Shown here: one piece after another, positions 8,574-18,645 of the stretch
Numbering within the stretch: position 1 is the stretch's first letter
How the letters are laid out: the number at the start of each line of letters is the position of its first letter
Source of the DNA: Gemmatimonadota bacterium
GTDB lineage: Bacteria > Gemmatimonadota > Gemmatimonadetes > Longimicrobiales > Gaopeijiaceae
DNA: 40,751 nucleotides
Direction of reading: 5' to 3'
Assembly: GCA_026706635.1 (NCBI GenBank)
Contig: JAPOYJ010000044.1
Location: 1-40,751, forward strand
Program-made: the position numbers and the translations under genes
The notes under the pieces: generated by a model
Seen by the model: the letters and a program-made list of their open reading frames with translations, nothing else
The model's database searches: none
Told to the model about the DNA's origin: nothing

Positions 8574-8828
8574 ATGAAGACCACCATCGATGTCCCCGAC
8601 GAGCTCCTCGCGCGGGCCAGGCTCCATGCGCGCGTCGCCGGCGTCCCCCTGCGGGCCGTGGTCGCCGAGGGGCTCCGGCTCCTGCTGGAGACGGACGAAT
8701 CCGTGGAGCCCTACAGGCTGCCCGACCTGAGCGTCGGTGATCCAAGAGCGGACGACCCGCTGGAGGCCTACTCCTGGCAGGACCTTTCCGAAGCCGCCTA
8801 CGAGCATCCGGGAGGGGGCGGGCGGTGA
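8574..8828 (+). CDS. VapB-type antitoxin, ribbon-helix-helix
   Basis: The product has 84 residues. The N-terminus MKTTIDVPDELLARARLHAR is the classic ribbon-helix-helix pattern (beta strand TTIDVP, then two helices) that dimerises and binds DNA, while the C-terminal part, DPLEAYSWQDLSEAAYE, would wrap the toxin. It should neutralise the PIN ribonuclease encoded next and repress the shared promoter. The stop overlaps the toxin start (GTGA), so translation is coupled. The ATG is unambiguous. Type II VapBC assignment is by order, size and partner. Confidence 0.75.
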   Translation: MKTTIDVPDELLARARLHARVAGVPLRAVVAEGLRLLLETDESVEPYRLPDLSVGDPRADDPLEAYSWQDLSEAAYEHPGGGGR

Positions 8829-9259
8829 TTGCGGTCGACACGAACGTGCTCGTCTACGCGCATCGCCGGGAGTCGGAGGTGCATGGCGCGGCTGCCGAGC
8901 TCCTGCGCTCCCTGGCGGAGGGCGCGCGCCGCTGGGCGATCCCCTGGCCCTGCTGCTACGAGTTCTTCGGGATCGTGACGAATCGCCGCATCTGGCGGGG
9001 GGCGGAGTCCTCTCCGCGCGAGGCCTTCGCCCAGCTCCTGGGGTGGACCGCTTCACCTTCGATCCGTCTGATCGGCGAGACGCGCGGCTTCCTGGGGATC
9101 CTGGAGGGTCTCGCCACCCGATCGCGGGTGCGAGGTCCCGTCGTCCACGACGCGCGTGTGGCCGCCATCTGCCTGGCGCACGGGGTCGAAGCGCTCCTCA
9201 CACGTGATCGCGACTTCGCCCTCTTCCCCGAGCTGGAGACACGGGACCCCTTCCGCTGA
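8825..9259 (+). CDS. VapC-type toxin, PIN-domain ribonuclease
   Basis: The 144-residue product is a single PIN domain, a Mg-dependent RNase that in VapC toxins cleaves tRNA or rRNA. The four acidic positions are visible: D5 in AVDTNVLVYA, E46 in CCYEFFGIV, D109 in VVHDARVAAI, and D128/D130 in LLTRDRDFALF. All are intact, so the toxin is probably active and must be kept in check by the antitoxin. Translation starts at a GTG inside the antitoxin stop codon. The segment SPSIRLIGETRGFLGILEGL, between E46 and D109, is the usual variable helical region. The RNA target cannot be told from sequence. Confidence 0.85.
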   Translation: MIAVDTNVLVYAHRRESEVHGAAAELLRSLAEGARRWAIPWPCCYEFFGIVTNRRIWRGAESSPREAFAQLLGWTASPSIRLIGETRGFLGILEGLATRSRVRGPVVHDARVAAICLAHGVEALLTRDRDFALFPELETRDPFR

Positions 9260-12109: not shown

Positions 12110-13084
12110 ATGGGCGACTTGCTGACGCGACGCGAATGGCTTCGGACCGCCGGCGCCTCTGGCGCGGCGCTCGCGCTGGCCCCCGACCTCGTGGCAGCGC
12201 TCGGGAGGCCCGACCTGATCGTGCGGGCGGTGCCCTCGACGGGCGAGGAGCTGCCGATAGTCGGCCTGGGGAGCTCGGCCACCTTCAGGCGGGTGGCGGG
12301 GAGCGACGACACCGGTGCGCTGGCGCGGGTGCTCAGCACCTTCATCGAGGAGGGCGCGCGGGTATTCGACACCGCGCCGAGCTACGGCGACTCGGAGGAG
12401 GTGGCTGGGAGGATAGCTGCCGAGCTCGGAGTCTCCGACCGGATCTTCTGGGCCACCAAGGTGAATGTGGCACGGCGTGGCGGATCGGCCGACCCAGCCG
12501 CCGCCCGGGCGCAGATCGAGCGCTCCTTCGAGCATCTGGGCGTCGACACGATCGACCTCGTGCAGGTGCACAACCTGGGCGACCCGGCGACCCAGGTGCC
12601 GATCCTGGCCGAGCTGAAGGCCGCCGGGCGCATCCGCTACATCGGGATCACGACCACCAGCAAGGGCCGCTACGGGGACCTGGCCCGAGCGATGGGGGAG
12701 TATCCCCTCGACTTCATCGGGATCGACTACTCGGCCGCCAACCTGAGCGCGGCCGACGAGATCCTCCCTCTCGCCCAGGAGCTGGGGATAGGCGTGCTCG
12801 TCTACATGCCCTTCGGGAGGGGTGCCCTCTTCTCCCGCGCCTCCGGCCAGGAGCTGCCGGGGTGGGCGGCCGACTTCGGGGCCCGGAGCTGGGCGCAGCT
12901 CTTCCTCAAGTTCGTGGCGGCGCACCCGGCGGTGACGTGCGTCACGCCGGCGACGAGCAACCCGAAGCACATGCTCGACAACATCGGGGCGGCGCGCGGA
13001 CGCCTCCCCGACGAGGAGGAGCAGGCGCGCATCCTGGAGGTTGTCGAGGCCCTCCCGCCAGCACCCCGGCGCCGCCGCGGGTAG
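12110..13084 (+). CDS. Aldo/keto reductase with Tat-type signal
   Basis: The product has 324 residues. TRREWLRTAGASGAALALAP at residues 6-25 has the twin-arginine pattern of Tat-exported oxidoreductases. The fold is a single AKR TIM barrel, with the catalytic tetrad visible as D87 and Y92 (VFDTAPSYG), K117 (WATKVN) and H154 (VQVHNLG). Such enzymes reduce aldehydes or ketones with NAD(P)H, but an exported AKR may hold its cofactor tightly or have another role; the substrate is unknown. The gene is convergent with the GH-like gene, only 11 bp apart. The last 14 codons and the stop are part of a 51-bp sequence repeated at 16678. Confidence 0.85.
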   Translation: MGDLLTRREWLRTAGASGAALALAPDLVAALGRPDLIVRAVPSTGEELPIVGLGSSATFRRVAGSDDTGALARVLSTFIEEGARVFDTAPSYGDSEEVAGRIAAELGVSDRIFWATKVNVARRGGSADPAAARAQIERSFEHLGVDTIDLVQVHNLGDPATQVPILAELKAAGRIRYIGITTTSKGRYGDLARAMGEYPLDFIGIDYSAANLSAADEILPLAQELGIGVLVYMPFGRGALFSRASGQELPGWAADFGARSWAQLFLKFVAAHPAVTCVTPATSNPKHMLDNIGAARGRLPDEEEQARILEVVEALPPAPRRRRG

Positions 13085-13093
13085 CCGCCTGCC
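13043..13093 (+). repeat. 51-bp direct repeat, copy 1 (3' end of aldo/keto reductase gene)
   Basis: The copy runs from GTCGAGGCCCTCCCGC across the TAG stop to TAGCCGCCTGCC. A second copy at 16678-16728 has the same length and differs at four positions. This copy is coding to its stop. Confidence 0.7.
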
Positions 13094-13095
13094 CC

Positions 13096-14214
13096 CTATC
13101 CCACCACCCCCCTCAGCGCGGCCAGGTGCTCGTCGCTGAGCCCGTGCATCTCGAACGTCGCCACCCCGGCCGCCCCCTCCTCCCGCGCCACCGCCACCGC
13201 CCCGGCGAGTTCGGCCGGCTCCAGCGACGGCAGGTAGAGTCCCGCGTGCAGCGGCGTTCCAGGGCGCGGCCTCCCCTCCCCGCCGCCGCCCGCCAGCGCG
13301 GCCACCCCCTCACGCACACACTCCCCGATCCAGGCGATGTCCTCCAGGTAGAACCCCTGGTAGAGCATGGGGAAGAACCGGTCGAGCGGCCATTCTTCCC
13401 AGGATTGCCGCACCAGCCGCCGCGCGACCGCGGGCGTCGGGAAGACCGCCGCGGTGATCGGCTTGTGATGCTCGTGCACCGCCGCGGCCAGCTCCCGCAC
13501 CGCCCCGGTCACGCTGTCCCAGCGGAAGCGCCGCCACGCCTCGTCGGCCGGGGGGTCCGGGATCTCGAGCGGGTCGCGGCCATCCAGCGCGGCGAAGCGC
13601 TCGCGGCATACATCGCAGTAGCAGAAGTCGAACTCCGGGTGCTCGACATCCTGCACGAGGTTGTACCGCTCCCAGAGTCCCCGGGGGAGGATCACGTCGC
13701 AGTGGCGCACGTAGTCGAGGTGGACGCCACCCACGCCCGGGTTCGCCGCCAGCTCCCCGACGCGACGACTCAGGTACTCGCGCACCGGCGCGCGCGACGG
13801 GCAGACCCACCTGTAGTAGTTGACGTAGGGCGGCTTCTCGAGCGACGACTCGAGGTTGCGACTTACTGTGAACCACTCGGGGTGGTTCTCCTGCGCCCAC
13901 TCGTCGCCGTTGCGGTTCATCGTCCAGAACCAGCGGTGGTACTCGAGCCCCTCCGCGCGGGCGGCCCCGGAGACGAGCTCCACGTCCCCACCCCCGACCA
14001 GCACCGCGCGAAAGCCCGCCTCGCGCAGCCGGGCGAAACGGCGGCGCCACTCGTCGGCGTCGTACTCGCGGTTGCCGTGTACCCAGCTCCAGAGGCTGAA
14101 GTCGCCGCCCCGGCCGGACGCCGACGCGCGGCCGGCAAGGGCGGATGTCACCGTGGACCCCCCAGCCAACGCCGCCGCCGCACCCGCCGTCTTCAGGAAG
14201 TCCCTGCGTCTCAC
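13096..14214 (-). CDS. Tat-exported glycoside-hydrolase-like TIM-barrel protein
   Basis: The product has about 372 residues from a GTG start that overlaps the stop of the upstream gene (GTGA). The N-terminus, RRRDFLKTAGAAAALAGG, is a clear Tat signal. The body resembles the GH10-like/putative glycosyl hydrolase barrel family: WVHGNREYDADEWRRRFARL, REAGFRAVLVGG, GVGGVHLDYVRHCD, the cysteine cluster FCYCDVCRERF, and the late QGFYLEDIAWIGECVREGV. Acidic residues in HLDYVR and the central strands are candidates for catalysis. It probably acts on extracellular polysaccharide with its CBM9-like partner, but the substrate is unknown. Earlier in-frame text is the partner's shadow and is not part of this protein. 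Confidence 0.75.
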   Translation of the reverse strand: MRRRDFLKTAGAAAALAGGSTVTSALAGRASASGRGGDFSLWSWVHGNREYDADEWRRRFARLREAGFRAVLVGGGDVELVSGAARAEGLEYHRWFWTMNRNGDEWAQENHPEWFTVSRNLESSLEKPPYVNYYRWVCPSRAPVREYLSRRVGELAANPGVGGVHLDYVRHCDVILPRGLWERYNLVQDVEHPEFDFCYCDVCRERFAALDGRDPLEIPDPPADEAWRRFRWDSVTGAVRELAAAVHEHHKPITAAVFPTPAVARRLVRQSWEEWPLDRFFPMLYQGFYLEDIAWIGECVREGVAALAGGGGEGRPRPGTPLHAGLYLPSLEPAELAGAVAVAREEGAAGVATFEMHGLSDEHLAALRGVVG

Positions 14215-15104
14215 CGCTCCGCCCCTCCGGTGAAGCGCACGGTCCCCCACATCTCGGGGATGTGCATGTTGATCTCGCCCTGCGGCGACCACACCCAGTT
14301 GTGCTCCGGGTGCCGGTCCCCAGGGCTCGGCTCCCGCGCCCTCCGGTATCCGCCCGGCACGACGCCGACCGGCCACTGCACCCGCGAGAAGTTGATTCGC
14401 CACTCGTCTCCGGCCCGTGGTCCGGCGCCCGGTTCGTGCCGGCCCTCCTCCGCGGTCGCGTACCGGTCCGTCTCCCTGGGATCGTCCTCGGCCGCGCCCC
14501 CCTCGGGCGGCCTCAGCGCCGACCACGGGATCGCGATCTCCACCGTCCACCCCCGGTCCTCGTCGGAGGGGTCGTTCAGGGTGCCGTCGAGCGCCACCGC
14601 CGTGCGGAGCCCCGCCATGTCCCACCCCACGTTGGCCTTGCCCTCGCGGTTGTACGGCCGCGGCAGGAACAGGTCGAACTCGGTGCCCAGCGCGTTGATC
14701 TCGAGCTCGTAGTAGTCGAGCGCGTCCCCGTCGGGGTCGATGAAGACCTCGAAGTCGTGCTCCCAGTAGAGGATGGCGTCGCGCTCGGCGAGTGTGGCCC
14801 AGAGGTGGGGCTCCACCAGCTCGGCCGCGATGTAGAGGTGGCCCTCGTCCCAGACGATCTTCGCCCGCGTCTCCCAGGTCGGCGCGGGCCATCCTCCGCC
14901 CCGGATGTCGATGAAGGGCTCGGTCCAGGGGGCCGCGCGCCAGGCAGCATCGCTGAGGGAGCCGTCGATCGCGGGCGGGGATGCCGCGCTCGGGGCGTCG
15001 TAGCTCCGCGGTTCGGCGGGCACTTGAGCGAGGGCGCCAGCCGCCGACGGCCCGTTTAGGCCCACCGCCACCGCCAACCCCAAGAGCCCATGGAACCGGC
15101 CCAT
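14211..15104 (-). CDS. Secreted carbohydrate-binding family 9-like protein
   Basis: From the ATG at 15104 the product has 297 residues, with a signal peptide MGRFHGLLGLAVAVGLNG ending near ALAQ. The rest is a CBM9-like/DOMON-type beta sandwich: PAIDGSLSDAAWRAAPWTEP, then KIVWDEGHLYIAAELVEPHL, WEHDFEVFIDPDGD, YYELEINALGTEFDL, GWTVEIAIPWSAL, and the family's closing HNWVWSPQGEINMHIPEMWG. An upstream GTG at 15158 is possible but would place 18 non-signal residues in front. It likely binds sugars in the envelope and is translationally coupled to the GH-like enzyme. The tandem palindrome lies 57-95 bp upstream of this start. Confidence 0.78.
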   Translation of the reverse strand: MGRFHGLLGLAVAVGLNGPSAAGALAQVPAEPRSYDAPSAASPPAIDGSLSDAAWRAAPWTEPFIDIRGGGWPAPTWETRAKIVWDEGHLYIAAELVEPHLWATLAERDAILYWEHDFEVFIDPDGDALDYYELEINALGTEFDLFLPRPYNREGKANVGWDMAGLRTAVALDGTLNDPSDEDRGWTVEIAIPWSALRPPEGGAAEDDPRETDRYATAEEGRHEPGAGPRAGDEWRINFSRVQWPVGVVPGGYRRAREPSPGDRHPEHNWVWSPQGEINMHIPEMWGTVRFTGGAER

Positions 15105-15160
15105 GCTGCACTCGGATGGCGATGCATCCGCGCGGAACCAGTGTGCTGTCCTGGTCACAC

Positions 15161-15199
15161 TGTAAATCCAACTTTACATAATGTCATGTCTACTTTACA
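15161..15199. promoter_or_regulatory. Tandem palindrome pair in the divergent promoter region
   Basis: Sites TGTAAATCCAACTTTACA (15161-15178, perfect 6-bp arms) and TGTCATGTCTACTTTACA (15182-15199) repeat the 21-bp phasing seen at 5863 and 20015, here without the flanking CCGTGG element. The pair lies between the CBM9-like gene (minus) and the symporter gene (plus), so it could control either. The remaining DNA from 15105 to 15392 holds no other gene. Confidence 0.5.
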
Positions 15200-15392
15200 T
15201 TTCCGCGTGACAGAACCGGCCTGAGCGAGCCCCCAATGTCCGGTGACCGGCGGGGCCGCGCAAGCTAGCAGCCGTCCAGGCCAGCCATCCAGGCGGCGGA
15301 ACCCGCGCTGCCGCTTGACCATCCACCCCCCGCGCCCCATGTTGCCCGCGACCCCTACTCCCGCCGGAGACCCACCCCCAAGGAGAACCCCA

Positions 15393-16655
15393 ATGGAATA
15401 CACCCCGGGCCAGGATTGGTACAAGCGTCTTCACTGGCAGGTATTCGTCGCGATGGTCGTCGGCGTCCTCATCGGATACTCTCCGGCCGGAGGATTCTTC
15501 GCGGACAACTTCGGCTGGCTCGGCACCCTCTTCATGCGCCTCCTGAAGATGATCATCGTGCCCCTGGTCATCACCTCCATAATCGCGGGGGTGGCCTCCG
15601 CCGGAGGCGGGCGCGTGGTGGGCCGGATGTTCGGCAAGACGCTGACCTACTACATGGTGTCGAGCTTCCTGGCCGCGCTGACCGGGCTGATCCTCTTCAA
15701 CCTCTTCAGTCCGGGACGCGGCTACCCGATTACCGACACCGGGACGGAGCCCCCCGACCTCGCGGTCCCCGATTCCTTCAAGGACCTGCTCCTGGACATC
15801 GTGCCCACCAACTTCCTGGGCTCGGCCACGGCTGGCGACATGCTGGGCATCATCTTCTTCTGCATCGTCTTCGGCGTGGCGGTCACGACGTTGCCGGAGG
15901 GCACCCGCACCAAGGTGACCGGCCTGGTCGACGCGCTCTTCAGGGCGATGATGGCGCTGACCCGGGGCATCATCAAGCTGCTCCCGATCGGCGTGTTTGC
16001 CCTGATGGTCACCCTGGTCTCCGGGACGGGCCTCAAGGCCTTCGGCAACCTGGCGCAGTACGCCGCGGCGCTGGGCACCGGTCTCGGCATCCACTTCTTC
16101 ATCACGCTGCCCCTGCTCCTCTACTTCTGGGCGCGCGTCTCCCCCTGGAAGCACGCGATGAACATGCGGGAGCCCCTCCTGGTGGCGTTCTCGACGAGCT
16201 CCTCGGCCGCCACCCTGCCCGTCACCCTGACGACCGTTCGGAAGAAGGTCGGCGTGTCGGACCGGGTGTCCTCCTTCACGCTGCCGATGGGCGCCACCGT
16301 CAACATGGACGGAACCGCGGTCATGGAGTGCGTGGGAGCGCTCTTCATCGCGCAGGCGCTTGGAGCCGACATCGGGTTCATGACCCAGGTCGTCGTCGTC
16401 TTCACGGCGCTGCTCGCGTCGATCGGTGCCGCCGCGGTCCCATCCGCAGGTCTGGTGGTGATCTTCATCATCCTCGGCGCGATCGGGATCGGGGACAATC
16501 CCGAGGCGATGCTGATCGTGGGCGCGATGCTCTCCATCGACCGGCCCCTCGACATGGCCCGCACCGCCGTCAACGTCTACAGCGACTCGTGCGCGGCGGC
16601 GGTGGTCGGGAGGTGGGAAGGCGAGGAGGGGATCGACGCGGAGATACGGACTTAG
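15393..16655 (+). CDS. Dicarboxylate/amino acid:cation symporter (DAACS, GltP/DctA type)
   Basis: The product has 420 residues from ATG 15393, with AAGGAG seven bases upstream; the earlier in-frame start at 15243 has proline/arginine-rich filler and is less likely. The inner-membrane carrier takes up glutamate, aspartate or C4-dicarboxylates with H+ or Na+. Diagnostic parts are the serine-rich hairpin FSTSSSAATLPVT, the unwound helix MGATVNMDGTAVME (NMDGT), and the second hairpin region AAVPSAGLVVI, followed by the DRPLDMARTAVNVYSDS helix that supplies the substrate-binding Asp and Asn. Hydrophobic helices fill the rest. It is transcribed away from the CBM9-like gene and shares its upstream region with the tandem palindromes. 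Confidence 0.9.
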   Translation: MEYTPGQDWYKRLHWQVFVAMVVGVLIGYSPAGGFFADNFGWLGTLFMRLLKMIIVPLVITSIIAGVASAGGGRVVGRMFGKTLTYYMVSSFLAALTGLILFNLFSPGRGYPITDTGTEPPDLAVPDSFKDLLLDIVPTNFLGSATAGDMLGIIFFCIVFGVAVTTLPEGTRTKVTGLVDALFRAMMALTRGIIKLLPIGVFALMVTLVSGTGLKAFGNLAQYAAALGTGLGIHFFITLPLLLYFWARVSPWKHAMNMREPLLVAFSTSSSAATLPVTLTTVRKKVGVSDRVSSFTLPMGATVNMDGTAVMECVGALFIAQALGADIGFMTQVVVVFTALLASIGAAAVPSAGLVVIFIILGAIGIGDNPEAMLIVGAMLSIDRPLDMARTAVNVYSDSCAAAVVGRWEGEEGIDAEIRT

Positions 16656-16677
16656 CAGCGCGCGGACGATAAAGGTC

Positions 16678-16728
16678 GTCGAGGCCCTCCCGCTGGCACC
16701 CCGGAGCCGCCGCGGCTAGCCGCCTGCC
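16678..16728 (+). repeat. 51-bp direct repeat, copy 2 (downstream of symporter)
   Basis: The copy shares 47 of 51 bases with copy 1 at 13043. It keeps the reading phase and the stop (VEALPLAPRSRRG then TAG), and weaker similarity extends back to the symporter stop codon. It is therefore the tail of a lost aldo/keto reductase paralogue, or a duplicated junction. Confidence 0.7.
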
Positions 16729-16755: not shown

Positions 16756-17226
16756 ATGCCCGAACAGGGGGTGCCGAGCGCCCATCTGCGAAACGTGGGC
16801 GGCGCCGTGCTTGGGTGGGTCGTGATGGCCGTCTGCGTCACGGGGCTCATGATCGGGCTCTTTGCGCTCCTCGGTCCCGATCGGGTGTTTCGGCCCGGCG
16901 GTCTGGAGCCCACCCCGGCGTGGCTGATCGCGTCGATCGCGATCGGCCTGGCGGCTGCGGTCGCGGGCGGCACCGTCTGCGCGAAGGTCGCGAGCGACCG
17001 CCGAGGCGTGCTCATGCTGATCGCTCTCGTAGTGGTCCTTGGAGTTGCGGATGCGCTCGCCCAGAGGCCTCCGCCCGAGGTGACGGCCCCCGAGGTGGTC
17101 GGCTTCCTTGAAGCCCTAGGATCGGCCCGGCCGCCTGCGTGGATCTCATGGCTCAGTCCGCTCCTGGGTGCGGTGGGCACCCTCGTTGGCGCGGGGATCG
17201 CCGGCTCGCAGGGCGACGGTCGGTAG
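16756..17226 (+). CDS. Small membrane protein of unknown function
   Basis: The product has 156 residues with about four hydrophobic segments: VGGAVLGWVVMAVCVTGLMI, WLIASIAIGLAAAVAGGTVC, VLMLIALVVVLGVADALA, and LLGAVGTLVGAGIAG at the C-terminus. No catalytic motif is visible and I do not recognise the family. The ATG at 16756 gives a short cytoplasmic head. It is followed six bases later by the MATE gene, so the two may be cotranscribed. Confidence 0.55.
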   Translation: MPEQGVPSAHLRNVGGAVLGWVVMAVCVTGLMIGLFALLGPDRVFRPGGLEPTPAWLIASIAIGLAAAVAGGTVCAKVASDRRGVLMLIALVVVLGVADALAQRPPPEVTAPEVVGFLEALGSARPPAWISWLSPLLGAVGTLVGAGIAGSQGDGR

Positions 17227-17232
17227 CGGAGG

Positions 17233-18645
17233 TTGCCAGATGGCGGGGGTGGTGGAGGTGGACTGAAGGGGCGCCGGCTGGACCGGTCGATCGCGGAGGG
17301 CCCGGTTGGGCGCGCCGTCTGGCGGCTCGCGTGGCCGACGATGCTCCAGAATGTCATCGGGGGTGTGCAGGGGATCGCGGACCATGCGATGGTGGGCCAC
17401 TACGTGGGGCACGCCGGCAACGCCGCGATCGGAGTGTCGTGGCAGATCTTCCTCGTGGTCCAGGTCTTCCTCGGGTCGCTCTTCACCGGAATGGGCGTGC
17501 TCGTCGCCCGCTACGCCGGAATGAACAGGCCGGAGAGGGTGAACAGGGTGGTGGCCCAGACGCTGCTGACCGCGGCTTGCCTCTCGTTCGTAGTGCTCGC
17601 CCCGCTGGGGTACGTGCTGGCGCCCCGGCTCCTCGAGCTGGTGAACGCCGCGCCAGCGGTGCAGGCCGACTCGCTCCCCTACATCCGCACGATGTTCATC
17701 TTCAGCTTCGGGATGCTGGTCTTCTTCATGCTCGGCGGGGCGCTCCGCTCTGCCGGGGACGCACGCACGCCGCTGCGGCTCGGCATCTGGATGACCGCGC
17801 TGAACGTCGTCGCCAGCGTGATCCTGATCCGGGGGCTCGGTCCGATCCCGGGCTTTGGGACTCTGGGCGCGGCTCTCGGCACGGCCCTGGCCAGCTGGGT
17901 GGTGGCGCTCGGGGCCGCATGGGCGCTCTTTACCGGCCGCTGGGTCATACGCCTCCGTCCGGGGTCGGACTGGCGGCCCGATCCGGCGATCATCCGCCAG
18001 CTCTTTCGCTTCGGAATTCCGACCGGCATTCAGGGCGTGGCGATGAACGTCGGCGGAGTGATCCTGCTGCGCTTCATCGGCTCGCTTCCCGATAGCGCCG
18101 AGGCACAGGCAGCGTACGCGGTTGGCTACACCCAGCTCTTCTCGCTCGTCACCTGGACGTCCGTTGGGCTGATGGCAGCTACGGCGGCGGTTTCCGGCCA
18201 GAGTCTGGGCGCGAGGCGGCCGGAGCGGGTGGCGCTGGCCGTCCGAGCCACCTCCCGGATCGGCCTAGGTGTGGGGGCCGGAGTGGGGTCCCTCTTCCTC
18301 CTGGCACCCGGCTTCCTCCTTCACCTGTTCGGGATGGACGATCCGGTTGCCCGAGCGATCGGTAGCGAGCTGCTCGCCTTCCTGAGCGTCTCCGGGGTCT
18401 TCGTGGCGGTGGCGCTCACCTACAACGGGGCGCTGCAGGGCACCGGCGACACACGGGGCGCGATGTACATATCGCTCGTCTCGCAGCTGGCCCTCCCGCT
18501 CGGCGTATGCTGGGGGGTGCAGCAGGTGGCGACCCTCCAGTCCCACCACGTCTGGACGGCGATCCTCCTTGGACACGTCTCGCGCTGCCTGCTCGGCATA
18601 GGACGATTCCGCCAGGGACATTGGCGGCGAATCGAGGTGGAGTAG
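17233..18645 (+). CDS. MATE-family efflux transporter
   Basis: The 470-residue product has about 12 membrane helices in two similar halves (MatE domains). Family hallmarks are IAEGPVGRAVWRLAWPTMLQ at the start, ADHAMVGHYVGHAGNAAIGV, GALRSAGDARTPL in the first half, and GALQGTGDTRGAMYISLVSQ in the second. MATE proteins export drugs or metabolites in exchange for Na+ or H+; the substrate here is unknown. The start is uncertain: an in-frame stop lies at 17224-17226 and the first usable codon is a TTG at 17233, right behind GCGGAGG. The conserved part begins about 20 residues later. Confidence 0.9.
   Translation: MPDGGGGGGGLKGRRLDRSIAEGPVGRAVWRLAWPTMLQNVIGGVQGIADHAMVGHYVGHAGNAAIGVSWQIFLVVQVFLGSLFTGMGVLVARYAGMNRPERVNRVVAQTLLTAACLSFVVLAPLGYVLAPRLLELVNAAPAVQADSLPYIRTMFIFSFGMLVFFMLGGALRSAGDARTPLRLGIWMTALNVVASVILIRGLGPIPGFGTLGAALGTALASWVVALGAAWALFTGRWVIRLRPGSDWRPDPAIIRQLFRFGIPTGIQGVAMNVGGVILLRFIGSLPDSAEAQAAYAVGYTQLFSLVTWTSVGLMAATAAVSGQSLGARRPERVALAVRATSRIGLGVGAGVGSLFLLAPGFLLHLFGMDDPVARAIGSELLAFLSVSGVFVAVALTYNGALQGTGDTRGAMYISLVSQLALPLGVCWGVQQVATLQSHHVWTAILLGHVSRCLLGIGRFRQGHWRRIEVE

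What the first reader, a model, noticed from the sequence alone, without database searches (positions are those of the whole stretch)
13043..16728. Gene-end direct repeats flanking the carbohydrate/symporter block
51 bp spanning the stop codon of the aldo/keto reductase gene recur 3.6 kb on with 47 identities, frame and stop kept, and weaker similarity back to the symporter stop. Duplicated gene 3' ends around a cargo block are typical of integration sites, or of a paralogue from which the rest was replaced. The cargo is a CBM9-like/GH-like pair and a dicarboxylate symporter.
Basis: partly seen in the sequence, partly recalled or inferred. Interest (0 to 1): 0.5.

Follow-up and report, generated by a model that had tools for sequence, protein, structure and literature searches.

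The report
Foreign gene block inserted between neighbours
A three-gene block (two sugar-related proteins and a small-acid transporter) came from a related bacterium and landed behind a reductase gene, whose last 56 or so bases now stand on both sides of it; it looks like an ordinary but well documented gene transfer, not an integrase-driven mobile element.

Summary
The repeat is real: the aldo/keto reductase (AKR) 3' end plus 9 bases after its stop recurs 3,635 bases on (47 of 51, or 51 of 56 bases), frame and stop kept, and nowhere else in this genome. Relatives show the empty site. In all 21 same-genus genomes with good matches to both genes, AKR and symporter lie apart, and AKR is followed by an AHSA1/SnoaL-like gene (in some after an amidase), with the small membrane protein and MATE beyond it in most. 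Here that gene is missing from the site and GHL10-like/CBM9/symporter stand in its place. The block is foreign: fourfold-site identity to relative G003 is 82-86%, against 44-45% for AKR, MATE and rpoB; the symporter tree conflicts with rpoB (AU tests). Both repeat copies share an extra Arg codon seen in none of 22 relatives, so the duplication arose in the recipient lineage. No integrase, transposase or second AKR accompanies it; Ku is encoded. I favour capture at a break with duplication of the target. The transfer is well supported; the joining mechanism is inferred. In passing: related tyrosine integrases abound in this genus (4-50 matches per genome), and their islands split the GHL10-like gene in several relatives.

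The parts
12110..13084 (+). Aldo/keto reductase (AKR), native gene; its 3' end is the left repeat
   Evidence: PF00248 129 bits; 72-75% aa identity to relatives, no closer to G003 than to others
13038..13093 (+). Left repeat copy: last 47 bases of the AKR gene including the stop, plus 9 bases
   Evidence: 51 of 56 bases equal to 16673-16728
13092..16655 (.). Foreign block: homology to G003 begins at 13092 and ends at the symporter stop 16655
   Evidence: G003 C189 89.5% (13092-13625) and C214 92.6% (13613-16655); 4-fold identity 82-86% v. 44-45% background
13096..14217 (-). GHL10-like (glycosyl-hydrolase-like) protein, intact here
   Evidence: PF02638 20.6 bits, E 2.7e-4, under cut-off; full-length homologues in G021 and G012 at 81-82% aa
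14211..15158 (-). CBM9-like protein
   Evidence: PF06452 45.9 bits; 91% aa to G003
15393..16655 (+). Sodium/proton:dicarboxylate symporter (SDF family)
   Evidence: PF00375 383 bits (on 15243-16655); 96% aa to G003
16656..16672 (.). 17 bases between symporter stop and right repeat, origin unknown (donor spacer or filler)
   Evidence: no likeness to the bases after the G003 symporter stop, by eye
16673..16728 (+). Right repeat copy: AKR 3' end duplicate, not attached to an AKR gene
16756..17226 (+). 156-aa membrane protein, native neighbour
   Evidence: homologues beyond AKR in relatives; no Pfam match
17233..18645 (+). MATE transporter, native neighbour
   Evidence: PF01554; conserved downstream of AKR in 20 of 76 scanned loci

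Best explanation
Horizontal acquisition. A 3.56-kb piece carrying exactly three genes (GHL10-like, CBM9-like, symporter) came from a relative of genome G003, where these genes sit at another locus beside an RtcB-like gene. It was joined into the AKR-membrane protein-MATE locus of this lineage immediately behind AKR. The native AHSA1/SnoaL-like gene of that place was lost, before or during the event. The join duplicated about 56 bp of the AKR end: the left copy still ends AKR, the right copy is a free remnant that has drifted. I think the piece was captured at a staggered or resected break (Ku-type end joining or another illegitimate join with fill-in), not placed by a site-specific recombinase. 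Shown: the repeat, the empty site in relatives, the foreign ancestry of the block, the absence of the AHSA1-like gene at the site, the recipient origin of the duplicate. Inferred: direction of transfer, the joining mechanism, that duplication and insertion were one event.
For: In these 21 the symporter is on another contig (19) or over 1.5 Mb away (2); G003 itself has the site empty and the block elsewhere. Foreign block: 4-fold identity to G003 85.6 (GHL10, N-half only), 84.8 (CBM9), 81.8 (symporter) v. 44.8 AKR, 44.4 MATE, 45.1 rpoB. Trees: symporter joins G000 with G003 (100/99) and rejects the six rpoB sisters as a clade without G000 (AU p 0.0003); rpoB rejects G000+G003 (p 0.0018). Boundaries of homology coincide with the inner repeat edge on the left and the symporter stop on the right. 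Recipient origin: both copies have the extra Arg codon and CCGCCTGCC; relatives read RRRG (14 of 22) or lack the Arg tail. Right copy carries P->L and R->S, left copy keeps the conserved residues. Ku present in this genome.
Against: Duplications of about 56 bp are long for a simple staggered-break fill-in. A single event is not shown; the AHSA1-like loss could be older. The RtcB-like pair on contig C33 is also closer to G003 than background (72 and 67% at 4-fold sites), so more than this block was exchanged and the story may be longer. The MATE tree does not reject G000+G003 (p 0.07) and AKR only weakly (0.022); in the AKR tree the place of G000 is unresolved (43/37). The genome is a fragmented draft; read coverage over the joins is not available. 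The no-hit for the AHSA1-like/amidase DNA elsewhere in this genome had no positive control.
Confidence: 0.6

Rival explanations
1. Single crossing-over: the incoming DNA was circularised and carried a stretch like the AKR 3' end; recombination in that stretch placed the block between two copies of it.
For: Gives exactly this anatomy (direct repeat of the shared stretch on both sides). Circularisation by ligation and single crossing-over is one fate of linear DNA in E. coli (PMC3240628, abstract and introduction read).
Against: The donor-side block in G003 has no AKR end beside it, and both copies carry recipient-specific features, so the circle would need recipient-like AKR DNA. It does not explain the loss of the AHSA1-like gene.
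Confidence: 0.17
2. Remnant of a second reductase or of a short tandem duplication: AKR (or its end) was duplicated first, and the block later replaced what lay between.
For: Right copy keeps frame and stop. Second AKR genes occur 7-8.5 kb downstream, beyond MATE, in 3 of 76 loci.
Against: No second AKR between AKR and the membrane protein in any of the 22 syntenic loci. High likeness stops at 16673, with no AKR coding sequence before it. One match to this AKR in the own genome.
Confidence: 0.15
3. Site-specific integration: repeat copies are attL/attR of a recombinase using the AKR 3' end, the enzyme acting in trans or since lost.
For: Gene 3' ends are classic attachment sites (recalled). The genus is full of related tyrosine integrases (4-50 matches per genome).
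Against: No integrase in or beside the block; the element ends that go with the genus's integrases are not in the window (best 25 of 49 and 23 of 42 bases). No other genome has an insert with an AKR-end repeat. Copies differ at 5 of 56 bases.
Confidence: 0.06
4. Assembly artefact: contig C80 is a false join of a G003-like sequence into this genome.
For: The genome is a draft of 86 contigs; relatives are metagenome-assembled.
Against: Longest exact run shared by the two copies is 16 bases, short for a false join by common assembler word lengths (recalled). The block is 7% different from G003. The only block copy in this genome is here.
Confidence: 0.02

Closest known systems
Homology-facilitated illegitimate recombination (HFIR)
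   Same: Foreign DNA inserted with loss of about 1 kb of recipient DNA (PMC3240628 introduction, describes about 1 kb insertions and 1 kb deletions with 3-10 bp microhomology).
   Different: HFIR uses a homologous anchor at one end; none was found between block and recipient. HFIR as described there does not leave a 56-bp direct repeat on both sides.
Integrative elements inserted at gene 3' ends (attL/attR)
   Same: Repeat of a gene 3' end with stop on both sides of a cargo.
   Different: No recombinase, imperfect repeat, no second instance, cargo is a chromosomal gene trio.
Insertion by end joining with target duplication
   Same: Direct repeat of recipient sequence at both joins, unrelated 17 bases at one join, Ku encoded.
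   Different: The duplication is long; the mechanism is not shown here.

Membership tests
Horizontally acquired block in an otherwise native locus | Relatives have the locus without the block | tested here: met
   22 of 76 AKR loci syntenic with the AHSA1-like gene, none with GHL10 or symporter there
Horizontally acquired block in an otherwise native locus | Block ancestry conflicts with that of the flanks | tested here: met
   4-fold identity 82-86 v. 44-45%; AU p 0.0003 symporter, 0.0018 rpoB, 0.022 AKR, 0.07 MATE
Site-specific integrative element | Encodes or adjoins an integrase/transposase | tested here: not met
   none in Pfam scans of 26 window proteins
Site-specific integrative element | Same site used in more than one genome | tested here: not met
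   no AKR-end repeat downstream in 22 relatives, 2 of them with mislocated stop
HFIR | Homology at one end of the incoming DNA | tested here: not met
   block-donor flanks and recipient flanks share none beyond a few bases at the left join, by eye
HFIR | Insertion coupled with deletion of recipient DNA | tested here: met
   AHSA1-like gene absent from the site here, present in the 22 syntenic relatives; coupling in time not shown
End-joining capture with target duplication | Ku/LigD machinery present | tested here: met
   Ku (PF02735) at G000:C15:16950-17486, 20 of 23 genus genomes; LigD not tested
End-joining capture with target duplication | Duplicate derives from the recipient, made at insertion | tested here: inconclusive
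   recipient origin supported by shared Arg codon; timing not shown
Paralogue remnant | Second AKR between AKR and the membrane protein in relatives | tested here: not met
   0 of 22 syntenic loci

The most novel reading that the evidence does not exclude
The AKR 3' end is an attachment site for a recombinase acting in trans, perhaps one of the many paralogous tyrosine integrases of this genus with changed specificity, so that bare chromosomal gene trios move between species as integrase-driven cassettes without carrying the enzyme.
Probability: 0.05. Interest if true: 0.65.

Novelty: new member of a known kind. Interest (0 to 1): 0.33.

Why it matters
It is a clean natural case of gene exchange between congeneric, mostly uncultured Gemmatimonadota, with donor locus, recipient empty site, boundaries at gene stops and a recipient-derived duplication all visible. 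Such cases show how genes enter chromosomes without an element of their own. By itself it is ordinary.

Tried and rejected
Repeat family in the genome: rejected, two places only. Repeat in relatives: 69-nt DNA query gave only short chance-like matches in 10 of 58 relatives, E 1e-4 or worse. Tandem AKR ancestry: rejected. Phage or plasmid carriage of the block: no relative of the GHL10-like protein in viral contigs, two plasmid records under 60% identity. AHSA1-like gene/amidase moved elsewhere in this genome: DNA query from G007 found nothing, without positive control. Element ends of the genus's integrases in the window: not found. Old home of the block in this genome: the RtcB-like neighbours lie on contig C33:1192-5064 with a leucine-rich-repeat ORF on the side where relatives have the block, near the contig end; the other flank of the native locus was not found by DNA. 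Names RtcB-like, Rieske and leucine-rich repeat are read by eye, not from a search. Literature: five-term search on illegitimate recombination and foreign DNA, none; HFIR, 49 papers, one opened; target duplication plus end joining, two listings, not opened; intragenic integration, seven listings, not opened; Palauibacter, seven listings, not opened; sponge integrase islands in Gemmatimonadota, none.
Full report
Observation. The repeat exists as described. 13043-13093 and 16678-16728 share 47 of 51 bases, 51 of 56 from 13038/16673, 84% over 69 nt. The same 51-mer finds at best 29 or 31 of 51 elsewhere in the window, and at most 34 in 200 simulated windows. A search of the whole genome (G000) gives these two places alone.

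Genes. AKR 12110-13084 (+), GHL10-like 13096-14217 (-), CBM9-like 14211-15158 (-), symporter 15393-16655 (+), 156-aa membrane protein 16756-17226 (+), MATE 17233-18645 (+). Upstream are a DNA methylase-like gene and a PIN-domain gene; downstream an ABC transmembrane protein, a peptidase S58 gene, threonyl-tRNA synthetase and NADH dehydrogenase subunits. No integrase or transposase is among the 26 window proteins scanned.

Empty site. I fetched the AKR neighbourhoods of ten same-genus genomes. In all ten, MATE follows AKR without the block, and a minus-strand gene of about 270 aa lies between; the example scanned matches AHSA1 and, below cut-off, SnoaL_2. A genome scan for AKR returned 76 loci; 22 have the AHSA1-like gene downstream, 21 the membrane protein, 20 MATE, none GHL10 or symporter within the up to 9 kb of downstream DNA held, and one (L180) a 25% CBM9-like hit. 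Some of the other 54 loci hold little downstream DNA. In 11 of the 22 an amidase or another about 1.7-kb gap separates AKR from the AHSA1-like gene (gene calls; Pfam amidase for the G007 case), so this interval varies in the genus. In this genome both are missing from the site, and DNA carrying both from G007 found no match elsewhere in it (no positive control).

The block elsewhere. The symporter has a 77-96% identical protein in 21 of 22 same-genus relatives (G016 lacks it), on another contig than AKR in 19 and over 1.5 Mb from it in two. CBM9 lies beside it in 7 of the 10 symporter loci fetched. A 23-genome DNA search shows block joined to AKR in this genome only among the matches listed; the list was cut.

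Foreign ancestry. DNA identity of the block to G003 is 92.6% (13613-16655) and 89.5% (13092-13625), against 80-85% to the next relatives for most of the block (74-75% for the GHL10/CBM9 part in G002 and G006). AKR and MATE are 74-76% to G003 and no closer to it than to others to any extent that matters. Fourfold-site identity to G003: GHL10 85.6 (N-half), CBM9 84.8, symporter 81.8, AKR 44.8, MATE 44.4, rpoB 45.1. rpoB puts this genome outside the clade of G003, G014, G007, G012, G018, G021 (97/98), while the symporter joins it to G003 (100/99). AU tests: symporter rejects the six as a clade without G000, p 0.00028; G000+G003 is rejected by rpoB, 0.0018, weakly by AKR, 0.022, and not by MATE, 0.07. 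The groups were chosen after the first trees were seen. G017 also nests oddly in the symporter tree. The direction, from a G003-like donor to this lineage, rests on the block sitting at a shared locus in the relatives.

Against a simple one-event story: the RtcB-like gene and its neighbour on contig C33 are also nearer to G003 than background (71.8 and 66.8% at fourfold sites), so exchange was not limited to this block.

The duplication. Both copies share an additional Arg codon (RRRRG; RSRRG on the right) and the 9 bases after the stop. Among 22 relatives, 14 read RRRG and the rest lack the Arg tail (for L128 and L129, where the script missed the stop, read by eye from the printed DNA). So the duplicate was made from recipient AKR. 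By eye, three of the five differences changed on the right copy (two of them alter residues), one on the left, one is unclear. High likeness stops at 16673; the 17 bases from the symporter stop to there resemble neither AKR nor G003. With the block and right copy taken away in thought, 27 bases would separate the repeat from the membrane gene, against about 1 kb in relatives without the amidase: insertion went with, or followed, a deletion.

Mechanism. Favoured: capture of a donor fragment at a break in the AKR end with duplication of the ends; Ku is encoded here and in 20 of 23 genus genomes. Rivals: single crossing-over of a circularised fragment, an older duplication, site-specific integration, assembly error; see the Rival explanations section. 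The paper opened for HFIR (PMC3240628: abstract, outline, introduction) describes insertion coupled with deletion, which fits in part, and single crossing-over of ligated DNA, which would give flanking repeats.

Side observation. In relatives the GHL10-like gene is an island target. In G006 its halves lie 29.4 kb apart on one contig (C41:51564-80995 between them) with a 442-aa tyrosine integrase (PF00589, 61.7 bits) at one end. The same cut at CGCAGTAGC is seen from the N-half side in six genomes (G003, G006, G002, G007, G018, G011) and from the C-half side in six (G003, G006, G007, G011, G002, G008); G010 is cut at a second place about 100 bases away. The integrase has 4-50 matches in each of 23 genus genomes (15 here); these counts at E<=0.001 may include ordinary Xer proteins. 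Of 30 integrase loci fetched, 19 have at least two GCGGGA within 60 nt after the integrase stop, against 46 of 6,000 random 60-mers; 3 of 30 adjoin a tRNA gene. In this genome the GHL10-like gene is whole.

Noticed in passing
Relatives: L189/L190 (G006:C41:51564-80995), L077, L084, L080, L082, L198, L109/L235, L191-L194; homologous to window 13614-13627: GHL10-like gene is cut at the same CGCAGTAGC core by integrase-bearing islands in several same-genus genomes; 29.4 kb island fully within one contig in G006; a second cut about 100 bases away in G010 (window about 13512-13523).
   Followed up: partly
Loci L239-L268 and 23 genus genomes: A family of related tyrosine integrases has 4-50 matches per genome in this genus, many followed by GCGGGA repeats and then differing target sequences, tRNA genes in 3 of 30 fetched loci: looks like an expanded integrase family with diversified sites.
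   Followed up: partly
L241 (G013) and L243 (G008), after the integrase stop: Close integrase relatives (98% and 92%) sit at the same core CGCAGTAGCAGA in what looks like a different target sequence than GHL10.
   Followed up: no
L188 (G000:C33:1192-5064): RtcB-like gene and neighbour, next to the block in relatives, are also closer to G003 than background in this genome (72 and 67% at fourfold sites): a second exchanged piece.
   Followed up: partly
window 8574-9259: Small ORF followed by a PIN-domain protein, likely a toxin-antitoxin pair (PIN by Pfam; the partner has no match).
   Followed up: no
AKR to AHSA1-like interval in relatives (for example L114, L121, L125): An amidase gene stands directly behind AKR in one part of the genus and is missing in another, so this interval is variable.
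   Followed up: no
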